From Kluyveromyces lactis (Eukaryota > Ascomycota > Saccharomycetes > Saccharomycetales > Saccharomycetaceae), in assembly GCF_000002515.2 (NCBI RefSeq), contig NC_006042.1, positions 2,538,198-2,602,197 of the forward strand: a stretch of DNA of 64,000 nucleotides, given 5' to 3'. Each line of letters starts with the position of its first letter. The first letter of the stretch is position 1. Of this stretch, positions 56,077 through 64,000 are shown one piece after another. The notes beneath the pieces were generated by a model. It saw only the letters and a list, made by a program, of their open reading frames with translations, had not been told where the DNA came from and did no database searches. The translations under genes and the position numbers were made by a program.

Positions 56077-58173
56077 TCAATTTTTAGATTTGAATATATC
56101 GTTCTTGACACCATTGAAAATTTTAATGAGTGAGTGTCTGCCGTCCCACAATGGGTAGAGGCCAATAAAAATGAGAGCCAAATAAACCCAGATAATAGAC
56201 ACAACCGTCCATCCAGCAAAGAAAGTTTTTGAAAAGATGTAATCTCTATACAATGGTAGAGGCCATACCACCCATGTTATCAATAATACGAATACTGAAG
56301 CACCTGCAGCAATTTTAGTGTAAATATTGATAATTCTCACTTCTTCCGCGGTGAAAGGTGTATTCGCTGGGTTTGAAGACACTTCAGTCTCGTAGAAAGC
56401 AGAATCTTCTTTCAATATTTCAACTGCATTTTCGGTTTTTGTTTCCAGTTCAACGCTAGGCTTAATACTTTTACTACTCTTTTCTTCAATTGATGGAGTA
56501 GCTTCTTTGAATCTATTATTATCATCAAATGAATCTTCTTCTTCTTCTTCTTCCTCGACAATGAGTTTAGCCTTCTTGAAATCAGACCAGTCAAATTTGT
56601 AATTTTTATCAAGTAAACTAATTGGAACGGTTAAAACACCTGGCAAGAATAACGCAGTAAGTCCACCATACATACAGGGTAGTTGTGAGCCTGTACTGGT
56701 AATTGTGACCTCGCCATAAAATTTGTAGGCAGTTCCCAACCAAACTGCAATGCCTGCCAAGAATCCGATCACAGGGGAAATTATGGCTGCAAGTGGTGTT
56801 TGTCTATCCCAGAGAATAGTCAATACCAATGGTATGACACCTGGACAAATAATCATAGAGTAGAAATAACCCATCCATGTCATATCTACTCCGACATAAT
56901 GCAACATGACCGTAAAGCCAGCTGCGAACAAACCGAAGAAAATGACCCCAATATGAGATACTGTGATTAATTGTGAATTGTTAGCATTGGGTTTGAAATA
57001 ATTCCTGTAAATGTCAAATGAGATGATTGAACTAACGGCAATCATTTGAGCACTAACAGTGGATGTCACAGCAAGATAAATAGCTAACAAAAGTCCACCC
57101 AAAGAACTTTTTCCGAGCACAGCCATTAGAGTGTAAGGCAAACCGAATCCATTATTGATCTCGTACGATGTCATAGCTCTTGGATAGGTTGGGAAAAAAG
57201 ATTCTCCTTCTAAAACAATATTAGACAGACCTATAATGGTACCTAATGGCCATACAATTGCAGGGATCAAAGCTGCGGCAATTAAATATCCGGGCACTGA
57301 AGCCTTGACATTTGCACTGAAGGCTTTCTGCCAAAAACTGGAATCCATAACTGTCAATCCAAAATCACCAACACAGTGGATGATGCCAAAGAAAATGGCC
57401 CCTTGAGACTTACCGGTTAGGAATGAACCCTGATAGTTACCTTCGATGTATCTGTCACCTTCGTGTTGTATTACCTTGTCGTATAAGCCGCTAATACCGC
57501 CGATCTTGTCACTGGAAATAACCGCAGTATTAAAGTAGACTAGGATGATCAAAGCAATTAATGAGTGCATGTAGTCTGTTAAAAATGTAGCCTTAAGCCC
57601 TCCAACGACAGTATAGCACATGACACCGAATGGAATCAACATAGTTGAAGCGACAATATGTAAGTTTCCAGAAATAATCGAAATAGCAGCAGCAGACCCC
57701 AAAATCATGGATGAAGATGACAGTAAATTGTTGACAAGACACATAAACATGTAGAGAATATGTGCACTTTTACCATAACGTAATTCTACAATTTCTAAAC
57801 AAGTATGCCCATTTGGAATTTTCTTCTTCGCTTGAATCCCTAACAATGCCATCAGACAAATTTGAACAGATAGCCCCGCAAAGTACCAAAAACTACTCAT
57901 AACCCCGTAAGAGTAAACCATTGTGACAACCCATAAGATTTCAGTTGCCCAATACCAAGAACTGAAAACAACAGAACCTGTTAAACCAATACCCACATTT
58001 CTGTTAGCAACCATGAAGTTCTCCGTAGATTGTGAATCTTCATGTAGATATTTTCCCATCAATTTGGTAGCAACAATGATACCCACCGCAAACAAAGCGC
58101 CGACACCAATCAAGACACCATACCCTGATGCTTTTGTCAATAAACTTATATTGACTTCATCTGCTGAACTCAT
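56077..58173 (-). CDS. DUR3: Urea/polyamine active transporter, Dur3 type
   Basis: A 698-residue sodium:solute-symporter-family permease of the plasma membrane that imports urea and also polyamines. I start it at the ATG at 58173 (MSSADEVNISLLTKASGYGV); the 45 codons upstream contain no ATG. Many membrane segments are visible, including SSWYWATEILWVVTMVYSYG (about 71-90) and GGLKATFLTDYMHSLIALI. A cytosolic loop near 550-620 has an uninterrupted glutamate run (VEEEEEEEDS) coded by repeated TTC/TTC (minus GAA) units at about 56535-56555. S. cerevisiae Dur3 (YHL016C) is 735 aa. It is the last intact gene before the subtelomere. Confidence 0.92.
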   Translation of the reverse strand: MSSADEVNISLLTKASGYGVLIGVGALFAVGIIVATKLMGKYLHEDSQSTENFMVANRNVGIGLTGSVVFSSWYWATEILWVVTMVYSYGVMSSFWYFAGLSVQICLMALLGIQAKKKIPNGHTCLEIVELRYGKSAHILYMFMCLVNNLLSSSSMILGSAAAISIISGNLHIVASTMLIPFGVMCYTVVGGLKATFLTDYMHSLIALIILVYFNTAVISSDKIGGISGLYDKVIQHEGDRYIEGNYQGSFLTGKSQGAIFFGIIHCVGDFGLTVMDSSFWQKAFSANVKASVPGYLIAAALIPAIVWPLGTIIGLSNIVLEGESFFPTYPRAMTSYEINNGFGLPYTLMAVLGKSSLGGLLLAIYLAVTSTVSAQMIAVSSIISFDIYRNYFKPNANNSQLITVSHIGVIFFGLFAAGFTVMLHYVGVDMTWMGYFYSMIICPGVIPLVLTILWDRQTPLAAIISPVIGFLAGIAVWLGTAYKFYGEVTITSTGSQLPCMYGGLTALFLPGVLTVPISLLDKNYKFDWSDFKKAKLIVEEEEEEEDSFDDNNRFKEATPSIEEKSSKSIKPSVELETKTENAVEILKEDSAFYETEVSSNPANTPFTAEEVRIINIYTKIAAGASVFVLLITWVVWPLPLYRDYIFSKTFFAGWTVVSIIWVYLALIFIGLYPLWDGRHSLIKIFNGVKNDIFKSKN

Positions 58174-60478
58174 TTGGAAGAATTTCTTTGGTTTCTTAGT
58201 ATCATAATAAAAGAGAGAGTTGCAATTCAACAAAAGCCTCTTGAGTGTTGACGCATAATTGTTAGATGTGAAGCTTATATAACTTCCCGATAATACTAGC
58301 TTCTTCACAAGAAATAAAGCGAGTGACTTTGATCTTCAGTTAAATCTACTAAGTGGGAATCGAACTACCCATGCCACCACCACAGTGACTCTGCTAAATT
58401 CATCTTTATTCTATTGGTGTAATGAGCTTCATAGATAATCAGCGTTATTACCACACGTCGGCGCAGAAAAAGCTTTACTACCCATTCCGGTTTGCCAATA
58501 CATTTATTTCTTATGGTGACTTTGATGGAATTAAAAGAGTGAGAGCTAAAGAAGACTTACAATATAATCATTGAAAAACAACTCATATAATAGCCGTACT
58601 GTAAATGACATTACCTAGACAAGTCCGGATTCCGTGAGATGAAACCGGTACCAAGTTAAGGTTATAGCTTGGTGAGTGGGGCTCGAACGTGTTCCCGGAT
58701 TTTTTCTTTTGATGAGTTTGTACTATGCTTACCAACCTTATTCATTCTATGATTGTCTTTGGCATGAGCCACAATTATCAGCAAAATCCATTGAAGAGCC
58801 AAATAAGGCACAGTAACAAAAAACACTTCGTATTAACAGCTATCAGCTGCCATCAATAATGAAAGTAAACATATCTTACGTGTCTGCCTAATCACGCGGT
58901 AGGTAAAGGCAGTCGAAATGATATTTTCATGTAGAAACTATTACATCAGTACGGAATAATATTACCGGAAGCACAACAATTCTCAATAGAATCAGGTACA
59001 TGATGGAGAAGTCAATCAATGTGGACGGCAGACTCACCCCATTCATCAAAATGTTCTTCTTAGCGGAAACCAAACGTAGCTTGCGAATACCGGAATTCAA
59101 CATGGGGGCAGAGTATAACATTTCAATTTGGATTTTCAGCAATTTCTTATACTCAACTGAGCTTGAATGTGTTTGAATGGAGATTTGTGGTAATATAATA
59201 TCTTGATAGTATTCACTGGATACCTAGAGAACTTAGTGGAAAGGTAATAAGAAAGTTCGTGACAATACTTCCTGAAGTCTTTTTTTTATTGCTCCTAACT
59301 GAGTTGTTTTTTTTTCAACTTGTAAATGAACAATTGGCCTCTGAGAGACAGCGGTTAGTGTTCGAATCATATCGGCTTTCAAACTGATAATGTATTCGTT
59401 AAGATTTCCCTCCTTACACTTCTTGTAAGTTGAAAATTGTCACATAGCTACAAAGAAGTGGGTAAATCAATATAAGAGTCACCGTGTCTTTGAATCAGCG
59501 GATCAGAATGTAGAATGTATTTGAATTGATTTATCGCTCAATAATAACACCGCCTTAGTTCTCTTGTACCAATGAGAGCCATTCTTAGTACGGCAGAAAC
59601 AGACCTTATATTTAGTTACCTTTACCATTCATTGCATGCATTTAGTGTTCGGTAGTCTTTTTTTTGACGTTTTCAGTCTTTGTAACTTTCTTCTTACCAA
59701 ACATACAGCGAATGGATAATAACCATCGCGTTGCTCCTTTAATTTTGCTTTTAGGAGTTTGAAAGTTTAAATCAGAGAGGGTGAAGCATCTTTATATCAA
59801 CCGTTTGATGTTCTCCGGTGTCTGATCACAACTAGGCTCCGAGCTATGAAATTTAAGATGTAGATAACGCAAAATTTCAAGTAAAGATTTCTTGCTTGTG
59901 GGTATCCGAATTTGCTCAAGTTGGATTGGACGATGATGAGATTTGGTAGCAGGCGCTTTTTTTAGAGTGTTAGTAGTATACATGTCAATAGATTCTATAC
60001 TGGCTTAGAGTTTGATAATGCAATTATTGGATGGTTGAACTGATGCTCTGTATGCGAACTTCAGCTAATTAAGTGTATTATTTAAGATGTTCTACTTGGC
60101 TTCCGCCTGACGGATAATTTAATATAGAGCCACAATAGATAGGTTGTCAAATCCGAATAGGAATTGAATGAAGATGCCATTTACTTATATACTTGTTACA
60201 TCTGATGTTCAAATGCTGGGTGCCGTAGCGTTGATGTTGATCATAGTGACTTCAGAATTCCTTCTGTATCGTTTCCATAAAGAGGCGGGCTGGGGATAAG
60301 TACAATGCCGTGGAACAATACGTCATTGTTAAACATTAAATCGATCCTATATCGTCTCTCCATTACAACTGTTGACGAAAACGTAGGAGTTTACAGGATA
60401 TTCATTTAAAAGTTTTTATAAGACTTGACCATAATGAATAAAAAGCTGAGAAAATCTAAGTGATTTCTGCTATGGTTA
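58174..60478. other. Gene-poor subtelomeric stretch upstream of DUR3
   Basis: About 2.3 kb without a supported gene. The DUR3 side has GATAA cores at 58434-58438 and, in reverse, 58775-58779, possible sites for nitrogen GATA factors. ATG frames at 59792-59983 (minus, 63 codons) and 60172-60303 (plus, 43 codons, hydrophobic middle GAVALMLIIVTSEFLLY) are short and unrecognised; the latter might be a remnant of a membrane protein. Two spots resemble tRNA T-arms (near 58357 and 58682) without the rest of a tRNA. Confidence 0.5.
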
Positions 60479-61485
60479 TCATTCCTCGGAAGCATTACCG
60501 GAACATTGAGTAACATCTTTGTTGTCAATACAGTATCCATAAACGACACTATTCGTGTTAAAAAACAGTTTTCCACGTGCAGAAGTTACCGCACCTAATT
60601 GATTATGGCCTTGTCCACCGCCAGGATTAGGATTATCAGTGGCTATCCAGCAGCTCTTCTAGGCAGTTGAACCATGCCAACAGTCGTAAACGGACGGATC
60701 ATAATCTTCCTCAGCGATCCTCTATCATGGGCACCAATTCTTAACAGATCTTTGTCTGCATCACCCCATGCCCAAGGTAGTTGTATCTCCCGTGTAAGCC
60801 CTCCTGATTAGTGTAATTTAAAGTTGATTCTAAACAGTCAGGGTTTTACTCTCAGTGGTATTATTGTCTATTAAGTCTGGTTTCAGTATTCAAAGGTACG
60901 GCAGTATTAGACTCCAGAGGGCTATCAAAGTATGGAATATGAACCGTGTCAGTGACAGTGTCGTATGCATCTACGATCAAAAGGTATCATACCCATCCTA
61001 AAGTCTGTTGAAGGCCAAACACCAATCGCCAATAGTAAAAACTCACGCGAGCAGCTCTGCTATCTTTCACCTTGATATATGTGGAATCTCCTGCTGAAAG
61101 AACTGAATTCTTCACGTTTTGCGTCTGATGAAATCCAACCGTTTTAGGTTTTCCTGTAGCCGTTTGAAAGATAGTACCAACGGTACCAGCAAGCGTAGCT
61201 GGCAAGGGCTCCTGCTGATATCAAGAACCCAGCAACAACTGAACTTGCAATCCAGTTCCAATGATCATGCTTGACTAGCACATAATTAGACACGCCACCG
61301 GCTTTCTCAGCAATGTTAACGTCATTCGAATGGCCTGCTTGTCTCTGAGCCTCCCTATATAAATGATAACAACTGATCAATCCAAAGAAGAAAACAAATA
61401 GAATGAGGAATTGAATGAGAATGGTTTTCCATGACTTCGTCGAAGGAGCTTCACGAACTAGGTTTTCAGAGTCATCTTGAATCAT
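60479..61485 (-). pseudogene. Frameshifted membrane/secreted protein gene, unrecognised family
   Basis: The minus strand carries pieces of one protein in several frames. The first starts at the ATG at 61485 and has a hydrophobic segment (KTILIQFLILFVFFFGLISC), a polar part and a second hydrophobic segment (NWIASSVVAGFLISAGALA). A shift of frame near 61190-61205 then continues as GTVGTIFQTATGKPKTV and DSRAARVSFYYWRL. After further stops, Cys- and Gly-containing C-terminal pieces are readable (YDCWHGS, CWIATDNPNPGGGQGHNQLG, FFNTNSVVYGYCIDNKDV, QCSGNASEE) and end at a stop at 60479-60481. I do not recognise the family. Such subtelomeric families often have intact copies at other chromosome ends. 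Confidence 0.6.
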
Positions 61486-61904
61486 GGTCAGTTTGCAGGA
61501 ATCACGCAACCTATTTGCTGGTAAGAAATAATACGTATCTCATAGTTCTATAAGCACACTTTCATAATGAATGTCGTAGGAAACCTTTTGTCTCGTTGAT
61601 TTTAACTTTCTCATGATATTTTTGTAGTACATTTCCCAACTTGGAAGATGTAAAATAAATATGTTTAATTGAGAGCATTTTTTTAGTTTTTGAGTAGGAA
61701 ATGAAGATTAGAGATGGAAAAGTGAAAGGAAGGAAAAGATGGAGGGAAGAAAGAGAGGACAAAGGCAAGGTGTAGGGAGGAATAATTGGGTGTAAGCAGT
61801 AGTATAATAGTAGTATAGCGGCAGTATACATCGAATAGGAAGTTCGTAGTTCATAGTTCAAGCCATGTACAAGGGATATTTGTTACTAGAGTGTTTGCGG
61901 TGGT

Positions 61905-62688
61905 CACGTGTATGGAGAAGCGTATTCTATTCACAGGGGGAGAGGTCCTCTATGTGAGGGATGATGGACAGAGAGTATGAAAATGAAAAATACTTCCTCT
62001 GTTTATCACGTGAATAAGTTCAGGGGATGATTCACGAGAGATTGAGCATTTACTCCTGGTGAAAAATGAAAATGGGATGGTTGAAGTAGTCACGTGTATT
62101 CAGGAAAAGGGCAACCATTTACAAGGATCCCCTTGTGGTAGCAGGAATAGTGCAATGAAAAATGAAAAAAATGAAACAGATTTGAAGGAAAAGGGGTAAC
62201 CCGGACAAAAACAGGATTGAAGTATGGATTGAGAATGGATGGGATGGGACAGGAGAGAACGACTGAGGTTCGTTCCGTATGAAACGATGTAGGAAGGTGG
62301 GTGAAAAGGAGTTGCGTGGGTAGAAAGGAGTGATAAGAGGCACGTGATGTACAGTAAAGCAGGGTAAGTATTAGGGTCAAGAAGTGAAGTAATTTTAAAT
62401 GAAGTTTGGTGGCAAGAGAAGCAGAAATGGGAGATGTGGAATGGGTATTGTTTGTGCGGGTAACTGTAGTATGTCAGACAGGATCATTGAAGGAACATGG
62501 AGGGAGAGGTGTAGTTTAAGTGCGGGTAAGTAGTAATTGTGAAAAAGATACAATCTGATATTCAGAGGGAGAGAGAGGGAAAGAAAGGTAGAATGAGAAG
62601 GGATGAAAAATGAAAGTGAAGAGAAGCAGGTGAAGAGAAGCAGGTGATGGGAAGCGGGAGATGGGAAGCGGGAGATGGGAAGCACGTG
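61905..62688. promoter_or_regulatory. Cluster of five CACGTG sites in the subtelomeric element
   Basis: CACGTG occurs at 61905-61910, 62007-62012, 62091-62096, 62341-62346 and 62683-62688, most within TCACGTG or CACGTGA contexts, which are Cbf1 binding sites. In a purine-biased strand this C-containing palindrome stands out; five in 0.8 kb is far above chance. Confidence 0.65.
62371..62376 (+). promoter_or_regulatory. TTAGGG (Tbf1-type) site
   Basis: TTAGGGT matches the recognition sequence of Tbf1, which binds subtelomeric repeats in S. cerevisiae. It lies between the E-box and CGGGTAA clusters. Confidence 0.4.
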
Positions 62689-62770
62689 ATTTATAATAAA
62701 GCAGGGTAACTAAGGAAGTGATGAAGTGAAGTAATTTGAAATGAAGTTTCATGGCAAGAGGAGCAAAAGT
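62382..62770. repeat. Two diverged copies of a ~80-bp block
   Basis: A block with CACGTGAT, AAAGCAGGGTAA, GAAGTGAAGTAATTT, AAATGAAGTTT and GGCAAGAG in the same order occurs at about 62341-62420 and again at about 62683-62765, 342 bp apart, with small differences. This indicates an internal direct duplication of the element. Confidence 0.75.
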
Positions 62771-62906
62771 TGGAAGAAGTTGAAAATGGGTGATAATTGT
62801 GCGGGTAACGTGTGTATCCTATGCAAGGACCAGGCCCAGCAGGACCAAGCATTGGCCATGGCAAGAAGGTGGATTGACAAAGAAAATGTGATGGAAGTGC
62901 GGGTAA
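62454..62906 (+). promoter_or_regulatory. Four copies of GTGCGGGTAA (Reb1-type sites)
   Basis: The decamer GTGCGGGTAA occurs exactly at 62454-62463, 62520-62529, 62799-62808 and 62897-62906, all in the same orientation. Its core CGGGTAA is the Reb1 recognition sequence (TTACCCG). In S. cerevisiae, subtelomeric anti-silencing regions combine Tbf1 and Reb1 sites, so this arrangement may be a boundary or anti-silencing module. Confidence 0.65.
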
Positions 62907-63039
62907 GGGGAAATGGTGAAAAACAGTCAAGAATACTGCCAAAAAAAGTATAAATTGAGGAATGAGAATGGATGAGAGTGAAAGGAGAAAGCGAAAGAGG
63001 AGAAGAGGAAAAAGAAATTAAAGTAAAAAACAAAGAAGC

Positions 63040-63266
63040 AAAATTACCGAAAGAGGAAATCCGTTTCGAGTGATTAGAAAAGAGAAAATGAGAAAATGAG
63101 AAAATGAGAAAAAGAAAATTACCAGAAGAGGAAATCCGTCTAGAGTGATTAAAAAAGAGAAAATGAGAAAATGAGAAAATGAAAAAATGAAAAAATGAAA
63201 AAAATGAAAAAAATGAAAAAAAATTGAAAAAAATAAAAGTAAAATTACCCAGAAAGGGAGGAGCGG
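63040..63266. repeat. Tandem ~75-bp units with GAGAAAAT microsatellite, next to the telomere
   Basis: A unit beginning AAAATTACC and continuing AGAGGAAATCCGT...GAGTGATTA then several GAGAAAAT repeats starts at 63040 and again at 63115; a third, partial AAAATTACC starts at 63241 and runs into the first telomere repeat. The GAGAAAAT tail grades into GAAAAAAT variants at 63180-63225. Confidence 0.8.
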
Positions 63267-63748
63267 GGTGTACGGATTTGATTAGGTATGTGGTGTACGG
63301 ATTTGATTAGGTATGTGGTGTACGGATTTGATTAGGTATGTGGTGTACGGATTTGATTAGGTATGTGGTGTACGGATTTGATTAGGTATGTGGTGTACGG
63401 ATTTGATTAGGTATGTGGTGTACGGATTTGATTAGGTATGTGGTGTACGGATTTGATTAGGTATGTGGTGTACGGATTTGATTAGGTATGTGGTGTACGG
63501 ATTTGATTAGGTATGTGGTGTACGGATTTGATTAGGTATGTGGTGTACGGATTTGATTAGGTATGTGGTGTACGGATTTGATTAGGTATGTGGTGTACGG
63601 ATTTGATTAGGTATGTGGTGTACGGATTTGATTAGGTATGTGGTGTACGGATTTGATTAGGTATGTGGTGTACGGATTTGATTAGGTATGTGGTGTACGG
63701 ATTTGATTAGGTATGTGGTGTACGGATTTGATTAGGTATGTGGTGTAC
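63267..63748 (+). repeat. Telomere repeat array, 25-bp unit, 19 complete copies plus 7 bp
   Basis: A perfectly regular 25-bp period: each unit begins GGTGTACGGATTTG and ends TTAGGTATGT. All copies look identical by eye. The G-rich strand is the plus strand, running 5' to 3' to the right, so the chromosome end should lie to the right. The unit equals the K. lactis telomere repeat that I know, and 480 bp is a normal telomere length for that species. The array ends after GGTGTAC, and other sequence follows (next entry). Confidence 0.97.
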
Positions 63749-64000
63749 ATATACTTTTCATGTGGTATCTTGCCCAACTTAATGTAAATACTCCATTTTG
63801 TATAGGTTTAGATGAATAAGTAGATTCTTTAATTTTCTTTATCAGCATAAAATCAGTGTCCCATATCTTATATGCCTCTTCTGACTCAAAATCTATATCA
63901 TCTTCTGATTTTATAAAATACTCAAAATTTACCCATTTTTGTGCGAATTTGCCCCATAAACTGTTCATAATAATTTTGATAACATTTTCCAGCACACTGC
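63749..64000 (-). pseudogene. Fragment of a family-B (protein-primed type) DNA polymerase gene, distal to the telomere
   Basis: The minus strand is open from the window edge to the telomere junction. It shows polymerase motif B, K-x3-N-S-L-W-G-K (63951-63977), followed about 55 codons later by SWARYHM (63759-63779), as in the DNA_pol_B_2 family used by linear plasmids (cytoplasmic killer-type and mitochondrial) and by Polinton/Maverick elements. The frame then runs into telomere sequence and stops at 63732, before the expected motif C with its DTD, so the polymerase is truncated at its C-terminal side. The 5' part of the gene would lie beyond 64000. The segment is about 29% GC. In Kluyveromyces, a linear virus-like plasmid is the most likely source; the Trp in motif B leaves a Polinton-like source open. 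Confidence 0.75.

What the first reader, a model, noticed from the sequence alone, without database searches (positions are those of the whole stretch)
63732..64000. Linear-plasmid or Polinton-type DNA polymerase fragment joined directly to the outer side of a telomere
The telomere G-strand points right, toward where the chromosome should end, but after 19 repeats the sequence switches at 63748/63749 to AT-rich DNA encoding a family-B polymerase with motif B and a SWARYHM block. The polymerase frame runs toward the telomere and is cut before motif C. A telomere-capped plasmid would have repeats pointing away from the plasmid; here they point into it. That fits end-joining of a linear element onto a finished telomere, so the array became internal, or a chimeric assembly. 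If real, it is capture of a virus-like element at a chromosome tip and leaves a fossil telomere.
Basis: partly seen in the sequence, partly recalled or inferred. Interest (0 to 1): 0.93.

Follow-up and report, generated by a model that had tools for sequence, protein, structure and literature searches.

The report
Telomere–plasmid cloning artefact at chromosome end
The piece of virus-like polymerase gene stuck to the outside of this yeast telomere ends in what looks like cloning-vector sequence, so it is most likely two unrelated DNA fragments joined in one sequencing clone rather than a real capture of a plasmid by a chromosome.

Summary
Nineteen perfect 25-bp telomere repeats end at 63748 and are followed by 252 nt of AT-rich DNA whose minus strand encodes part of a family-B polymerase (Pfam DNA_pol_B_2, E 2.7e-16). 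The same outward sequence follows the telomere repeats at three other chromosome ends, longer at two and shorter at one. So the tail looks like the end of one shotgun-clone insert: chromosome, telomere, 236 nt of plasmid-type polymerase, adaptor, vector. The polymerase piece is cut inside the gene on both sides, has no stop or frameshift, and has no second copy found in the genome. It is 77% identical (61 of 79 residues) to an intact ~1000-residue polymerase on an AT-rich contig. Best reading: a chimeric clone in which a fragment of a cytoplasmic linear plasmid was ligated to a telomere end and left untrimmed. Reads were not available, so in vivo capture is not strictly excluded, but nothing supports it positively.

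The parts
62072..63271 (+). Purine-rich subtelomeric element (73.6% A+G on the G-strand) that adjoins the telomere
   Evidence: 70.6-74.6% purine in the 1200 nt before the first perfect repeat block at all 12 ends (at C2L this stretch includes some imperfect repeat sequence); 8 of the 11 other ends match over about 1.1 kb at 92-94% identity, C1R and C5R only in shorter pieces, C2R not at all. Supports that the array is an ordinary chromosome end.
63267..63748 (+). Telomere array, 25-bp unit, 19 perfect copies, G-strand pointing right
   Evidence: other 11 ends: 12-25 perfect copies
63749..63984 (-). Internal fragment (about 79 codons, motif B to SWARYHMKSI) of a terminal-protein family-B DNA polymerase of cytoplasmic linear plasmid type; cut inside the gene on both sides
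   Evidence: PF03175, E 2.7e-16; relative on L027, 61 of 79 residues and 189 of 237 nt identical
63985..64000 (+). Probable cloning adaptor and first bases of the vector (BstXI-adaptor/pcDNA-type junction, identified by recall plus literature passages); the last base is probably a read error
   Evidence: 14 of 14 bases (63986-63999) match adaptor+polylinker, 0 of 2000 shuffles as good; same sequence at C1 left, C3 right, C4 right tips

Best explanation
The tail is an artefact of clone-based shotgun sequencing. In preparing the library, the natural end of the chromosome (telomere terminus, made blunt) was ligated to a sheared internal fragment of a high-copy cytoplasmic linear plasmid, probably the pGKL1 polymerase gene. 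The joined insert was then cloned through adaptors into a pcDNA-type vector. The read from that clone runs telomere, plasmid, adaptor, vector, and was left untrimmed as the last 252 bases of the record. Shown: the telomere array, the polymerase homology, the record end, and a shared adaptor/vector-like sequence at this and three other tips. Inferred: the identity of the vector, that the joint was made in vitro, and that the donor is pGKL1 of the same strain.
For: Window end = contig end. Adaptor/vector: CCAGCACACTG has 6 exact sites in 10.73 Mb, and 3 of the 6 lie within 60 nt of a contig tip, all reading outward (P about 6e-12, but the word was chosen after seeing the tips, so this is not a blind test). 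Aligned to adaptor+polylinker typed from recall: C3 right 43 nt, C1 left 20 nt, C4 right 10 nt, window 14 nt; C1 right and C5 left were tested and do not match. An oligonucleotide for a pcDNA3-based construct in PMC4429562 contains CCAGCACACTGGCGGCCGT (passages). Genoscope shotgun fragments were ligated into pcDNA2.1 'using BstXI linkers' (PMC2270835, passage), and a Genoscope/Genolevures yeast project also used pcDNA2.1 (PMC4022394, passages). Polymerase homology ends about where the adaptor begins. Both ends of the piece are internal to the gene, as for sheared DNA. No stop or frameshift, dN/dS about 0.16 against L027: not an old decayed relic. No other copy of the polymerase found in the genome.
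Against: Vector at the tip shows that the clone insert ends there; by itself it does not show where the telomere-plasmid joint was made, since a real genomic joint would be cloned with the same adaptor. I could not see the reads, so the number of clones that cross 63748/63749 is unknown. The vector was not found in PLSDB by similarity. The adaptor's first base as recalled (C) is T in the window.
Confidence: 0.91

Rival explanations
1. In vivo capture: a fragment of a cytoplasmic linear plasmid was joined by end-joining to the finished telomere of this chromosome (a nuclear plasmid-derived sequence, NUPAV, at a chromosome tip), and the shotgun clone happened to be cut inside it.
For: Plasmid-derived nuclear sequences are known in yeasts (passages of PMC4431711 and PMC5499181). 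The polymerase reads toward the telomere, so the plasmid part upstream of the gene would lie outward; in L027 the polymerase ORF starts 275 nt from the contig end, though that contig end is not shown to be an element terminus.
Against: By homology the joint lies inside the gene and not at a plasmid terminus; no decay; no other polymerase piece found in the genome; array length (19) lies inside the range of the other ends (12-25), so the end looks like an ordinary telomere; vector-like sequence at the tip. A recent capture cloned once would look the same.
Confidence: 0.06
2. Assembly (computer) chimera: a read of a plasmid clone was joined wrongly to the last telomere read, without any chimeric DNA molecule.
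For: Same end product; telomere arrays are repetitive and easily misjoined; the tail carries vector-like sequence at its outer end.
Against: No shared stretch between telomere and polymerase piece is visible at the joint that would make an overlap (sequence; the donor beyond the joint is unknown); a single read that crosses the joint is the easier source.
Confidence: 0.03

Closest known systems
Untrimmed vector/adaptor and chimeric inserts at the ends of Sanger shotgun contigs (class recalled)
   Same: Adaptor/vector-like sequence at the tip, seen also at three other ends of the same genome record
   Different: Here 236 nt of another replicon lie between the telomere and the adaptor; the other three go from repeats to adaptor/vector
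Terminal-protein DNA polymerase of cytoplasmic linear plasmids (pGKL1 ORF1, TP-DNAP1)
   Same: DNA_pol_B_2 homology; AT-rich; wild-type residues I777 and W814 of TP-DNAP1 (variant names in passages) fall on I and W of the fragment at one offset, and L640 on L of the L027 homologue at the same numbering
[quoted passage not shown] Frank and Wolfe 2009, not found held under the DOI tried; seen through passages of PMC4431711 and PMC5499181)
   Same: Plasmid-type gene fragment in a nuclear chromosome record near a chromosome end
   Different: No decay, outside the telomere, ends in vector-like sequence
pGKL-based vectors that acquire telomeres under nuclear selection (Kamper 1989; title only, in the reference list of PMC6211774; paper not held)
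   Same: Same two partners, K. lactis telomere and killer-plasmid DNA
   Different: There telomeres are attached to the plasmid (recalled: G-strand pointing away from it); here the G-strand points into the plasmid piece

Membership tests
Chimeric shotgun clone with untrimmed vector | Vector/adaptor at the end of the foreign piece | tested here: met
   14 of 14 bases at 63986-63999. In all, 4 of 12 chromosome ends carry it (C1L, C3R, C4R, C6R); tails of C1R and C5L were tested and do not match; the other 6 ends stop within repeats. Vector sequence typed from recall, backed by passages; not found in PLSDB
Chimeric shotgun clone with untrimmed vector | Joint carried by one clone only | not testable with these tools
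   reads are not held
Chimeric shotgun clone with untrimmed vector | Both ends of the foreign piece are breaks inside a longer sequence | tested here: met
   homologous to residues 788-866 of the 1003-residue L027 polymerase; neither end is a gene end
Cytoplasmic linear plasmid TP-DNA polymerase | Family-B (DNA_pol_B_2) palm motifs | tested here: met
   alignment with L027; motif names recalled
Cytoplasmic linear plasmid TP-DNA polymerase | About 1000-residue protein with long N-terminal terminal-protein part, AT-rich | tested here: inconclusive
   true in length and composition of the nearest relative L027 (1003 aa, DNA_pol_B_2 at 423-872, 26-29% GC); the window holds only 79 codons
Cytoplasmic linear plasmid TP-DNA polymerase | Identity with pGKL1 of the strain | not testable with these tools
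   no pGKL1 sequence was found in the collections searched; residue fingerprint only
NUPAV (genuine nuclear capture) | Continuity with chromosome on both sides, or several reads across the joint | tested here: inconclusive
   the record ends in vector-like sequence 236 nt after the joint, so there is no outer chromosomal side to test; reads not held
NUPAV (genuine nuclear capture) | Relics in different stages of degeneration (as PMC4431711 words it) | tested here: not met
   no stop, no frameshift, dN 0.15, dS 0.92; a very recent capture would look the same
Polinton / Maverick | Capsid, ATPase, integrase genes and terminal inverted repeats nearby | tested here: inconclusive
   nothing beyond the polymerase piece exists in the record; L027 shows a polymerase ORF, one unassigned partial ORF and one short ORF, and only weak AT-rich inverted repeats

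The most novel reading that the evidence does not exclude
In the sequenced strain, this chromosome arm really ends in a captured terminal piece of a cytoplasmic killer plasmid outside a full telomere. The plasmid's own tip would then point outward and might even be kept by protein-primed replication, leaving an internal fossil telomere.
Probability: 0.03. Interest if true: 0.85.

Novelty: not a real feature. Interest (0 to 1): 0.1.

Why it matters
Mainly as a correction: the last 252 bases of this chromosome record should not be used as evidence of plasmid-to-nucleus transfer or of an interstitial telomere, and three other ends of the same genome appear to carry leftover vector. It also suggests that the DNA that was sequenced held a linear plasmid. 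If, against expectation, the joint were genomic, it would be a telomere made internal by plasmid capture.

Tried and rejected
Looked for sequence beyond 64000: none exists. Looked for a second copy or other pieces of the polymerase in the genome by protein, profile, DNA and the L027 homologue: only this place was reported (these searches score the best candidates only). Looked for relatives in phages (none at E 1), bacterial plasmids (two Rhizobium matches, E 2; none at E 0.001 for the L027 protein), IMG/VR (4 pattern matches, none confirmed), solved structures (one match, E 0.64, presumed chance). Looked for the vector in PLSDB with the C3R tail (3 matches, E 0.07-3, presumed chance) and with the polylinker from recall (none): the vector identity therefore rests on literature passages and recall. 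A polylinker part further into the vector is absent from the genome, as expected for tails that are short or full of read errors. Inverted repeats in L027: 11 pairs of 21-45 nt, 71-82% complementary, AT-rich, none at both contig ends, so no element terminus is shown.

Papers: a text search for SWARYHM found 0. Searches for earlier mention of plasmid DNA or a chimera at this end showed none in what was listed (20 of 166; 5 of 5, passages of 2 read; 20 of 65; 15 of 66), so I do not claim that it is absent from print. Frank and Wolfe 2009 (DOI typed from recall), Ravikumar 2018 (DOI from recall) and Kamper 1989 were not held. The paper on strain GG799 (PMC5532825, whole text) says of chromosome ends only that subtelomeres are not identical in organisation. 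PMC5618225 (passages) did not say whether NRRL Y-1140 carries plasmids; PMC7555113 and PMC7648111 (passages) gave no further residues. Considered and rejected: telomere-capped plasmid (orientation wrong), Polinton (no supporting gene), ordinary chromosomal gene (outside the telomere, vector-like tip).

Full report
What the window is. The window is positions 2538198-2602197 of contig C6 in a 10.73-Mb, 7-contig genome, and C6 is 2,602,197 bases long, so base 64000 is the last base of the chromosome record. The contig lengths (1,062,590; 1,320,834; 1,753,957; 1,715,506; 2,234,072; 2,602,197; and 40,291) and the 25-bp telomere unit are, by my recall, those of Kluyveromyces lactis NRRL Y-1140, chromosomes A-F and mitochondrial DNA. 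CBS 2359 = CLIB 210 as reference strain and the accessions CR382121-CR382126 are given in PMC9897184 (passages), and CBS 2359 = NRRL Y-1140 in PMC3508617 (passages).

The observation. The array has 19 perfect units at 63272-63746, and telomeric sequence runs to 63748. It follows a purine-rich element (73.6% A+G here; 70.6-74.6% over all 12 ends) that matches 8 of the 11 other ends at 92-94% identity over about 1.1 kb; two more match in shorter pieces and C2R not at all. It looks like an ordinary, full-length chromosome end: the other 11 ends have 12-25 perfect units. The following 252 nt encode on the minus strand 83 codons without a stop. Pfam DNA_pol_B_2 matches at E 2.7e-16. The open frame alone would not be remarkable (345 of 3900 control frames).

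The key finding: vector-like sequence at the tip. I compared all 12 chromosome ends. Six (C2L, C2R, C3L, C4L, C5R, C6L) stop within repeats. Of the other six, C3R reads ...ACGGATTTGATT, then CTTTACCAGCACACTGGCGGCG... for 50 nt; C1L has CCAGCACACTGGCGCCGGTT; C4R has CTTTCCAGCAT; the window's end has TTTTCCAGCACACTGC. These four align to a cloning adaptor plus pcDNA-type polylinker with 1, 0, 1 and 0 of 2000 shuffles scoring as well (C1L, C3R, C4R, C6R). C1R and C5L were tested and do not match (1886 and 1607 of 2000 shuffles score as well). Genome-wide, CCAGCACACTG occurs at 6 places, 3 of them within 60 nt of a contig tip and reading outward; the nominal chance probability is about 6e-12, but the word was chosen after the tips had been seen. 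The polylinker and adaptor were typed from recall. Independent support: an oligonucleotide for a pcDNA3-based construct in PMC4429562 contains CCAGCACACTGGCGGCCGT (passages); [quoted passage not shown] and a Genoscope/Genolevures yeast project used pcDNA2.1 for its 3-kb library (PMC4022394, passages). That K. lactis was sequenced at Genoscope in this way is recalled and was not read. Against it: neither the C3R tail nor the recalled polylinker found the vector in PLSDB.

What lies between telomere and vector. About 236 nt (63749-63984, 28% GC). The only confirmed relative in the collections searched is L027, a 3,779-nt contig filed under a Clostridia metagenome bin (1 of 50 pattern matches). 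It encodes a 1003-residue polymerase (DNA_pol_B_2 E 5.6e-115) at 26-29% GC. 61 of 79 residues and 189 of 237 nucleotides are identical; differences by codon position are 15, 8 and 25, dN 0.15 and dS 0.92. The alignment is unbroken from residue 5, just inside the adaptor; of residues 2-4 only one matches. In L027 YSDTDS follows 14 residues after SWARHHMK, so the fragment is cut on both sides within the gene. Published variant names of the pGKL1 polymerase TP-DNAP1 (passages of PMC10920827 and PMC8601171) give wild-type residues L477, L640, I777, W814. I777 and W814 fall on I and W of the fragment with one offset; L640 falls on L in L027 with the same numbering, and L477 is one residue off. The I-W spacing alone arises in 25% of shuffles, so pGKL1 is the likely but not the proven source. 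PMC6831550 (passages) states that pGKL1 (8,874 bp) and pGKL2 (13,447 bp) each encode a DNA polymerase with terminal protein. That CBS 2359 carries them, at 50-100 copies per cell, is recalled; at that dose plasmid DNA would be roughly a tenth or more of a total-DNA library and so a likely chimera partner.

Interpretation. A telomere terminus is a natural DNA end, and after blunting it can be ligated to any sheared fragment. This gives the orientation seen, with the G-strand pointing into foreign DNA, and a foreign piece with gene-internal breaks at both sides. In vivo capture would more naturally show a plasmid terminus, other relics or decay. None is seen, though a recent capture cloned once would look the same. 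The vector-like sequence shows where the cloned insert ends; it does not by itself date the joint. Hence 0.91 for the clone chimera, 0.06 for real capture, 0.03 for a purely computational misjoin.

Known background. Nuclear captures of plasmid genes (NUPAVs) are established in yeasts (passages of PMC4431711; PMC5499181), and telomere attachment to killer-plasmid vectors under nuclear selection is the title of Kamper 1989 (seen in a reference list only), by my recall with the opposite arrangement. On the evidence at hand the junction is not shown to belong to either class.

Noticed in passing
G000 C1:1-20, C3:last 50 nt, C4:last 11 nt (loci L010, L021, L022): Three other chromosome ends of the same genome record retain adaptor/vector-like sequence after the telomere repeats.
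   Followed up: yes
L027:275-3286 (CAMTHN010000088.1): A contig filed in a Clostridia metagenome bin encodes a complete ~1000-residue terminal-protein-type DNA polymerase at 26-29% GC; it looks like a yeast cytoplasmic linear plasmid binned with a bacterium (inference).
   Followed up: partly
L010, L015, L022, L023: Single variant telomere repeats of 31, 31, 30 and 26 nt interrupt the arrays at C1L, C4L, C4R and C5R; C1L and C4L share the same variant.
   Followed up: no
C1R and C5L tips (L011, L016): The last 25-33 nt after the last perfect repeat are degenerate or unrelated letters that match neither perfect repeats nor vector; probably low-quality read ends.
   Followed up: partly
window 58174-64000: No ATG-started ORF of 150 or more codons lies in the last 5.8 kb; the last one listed ends at 58173.
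   Followed up: no
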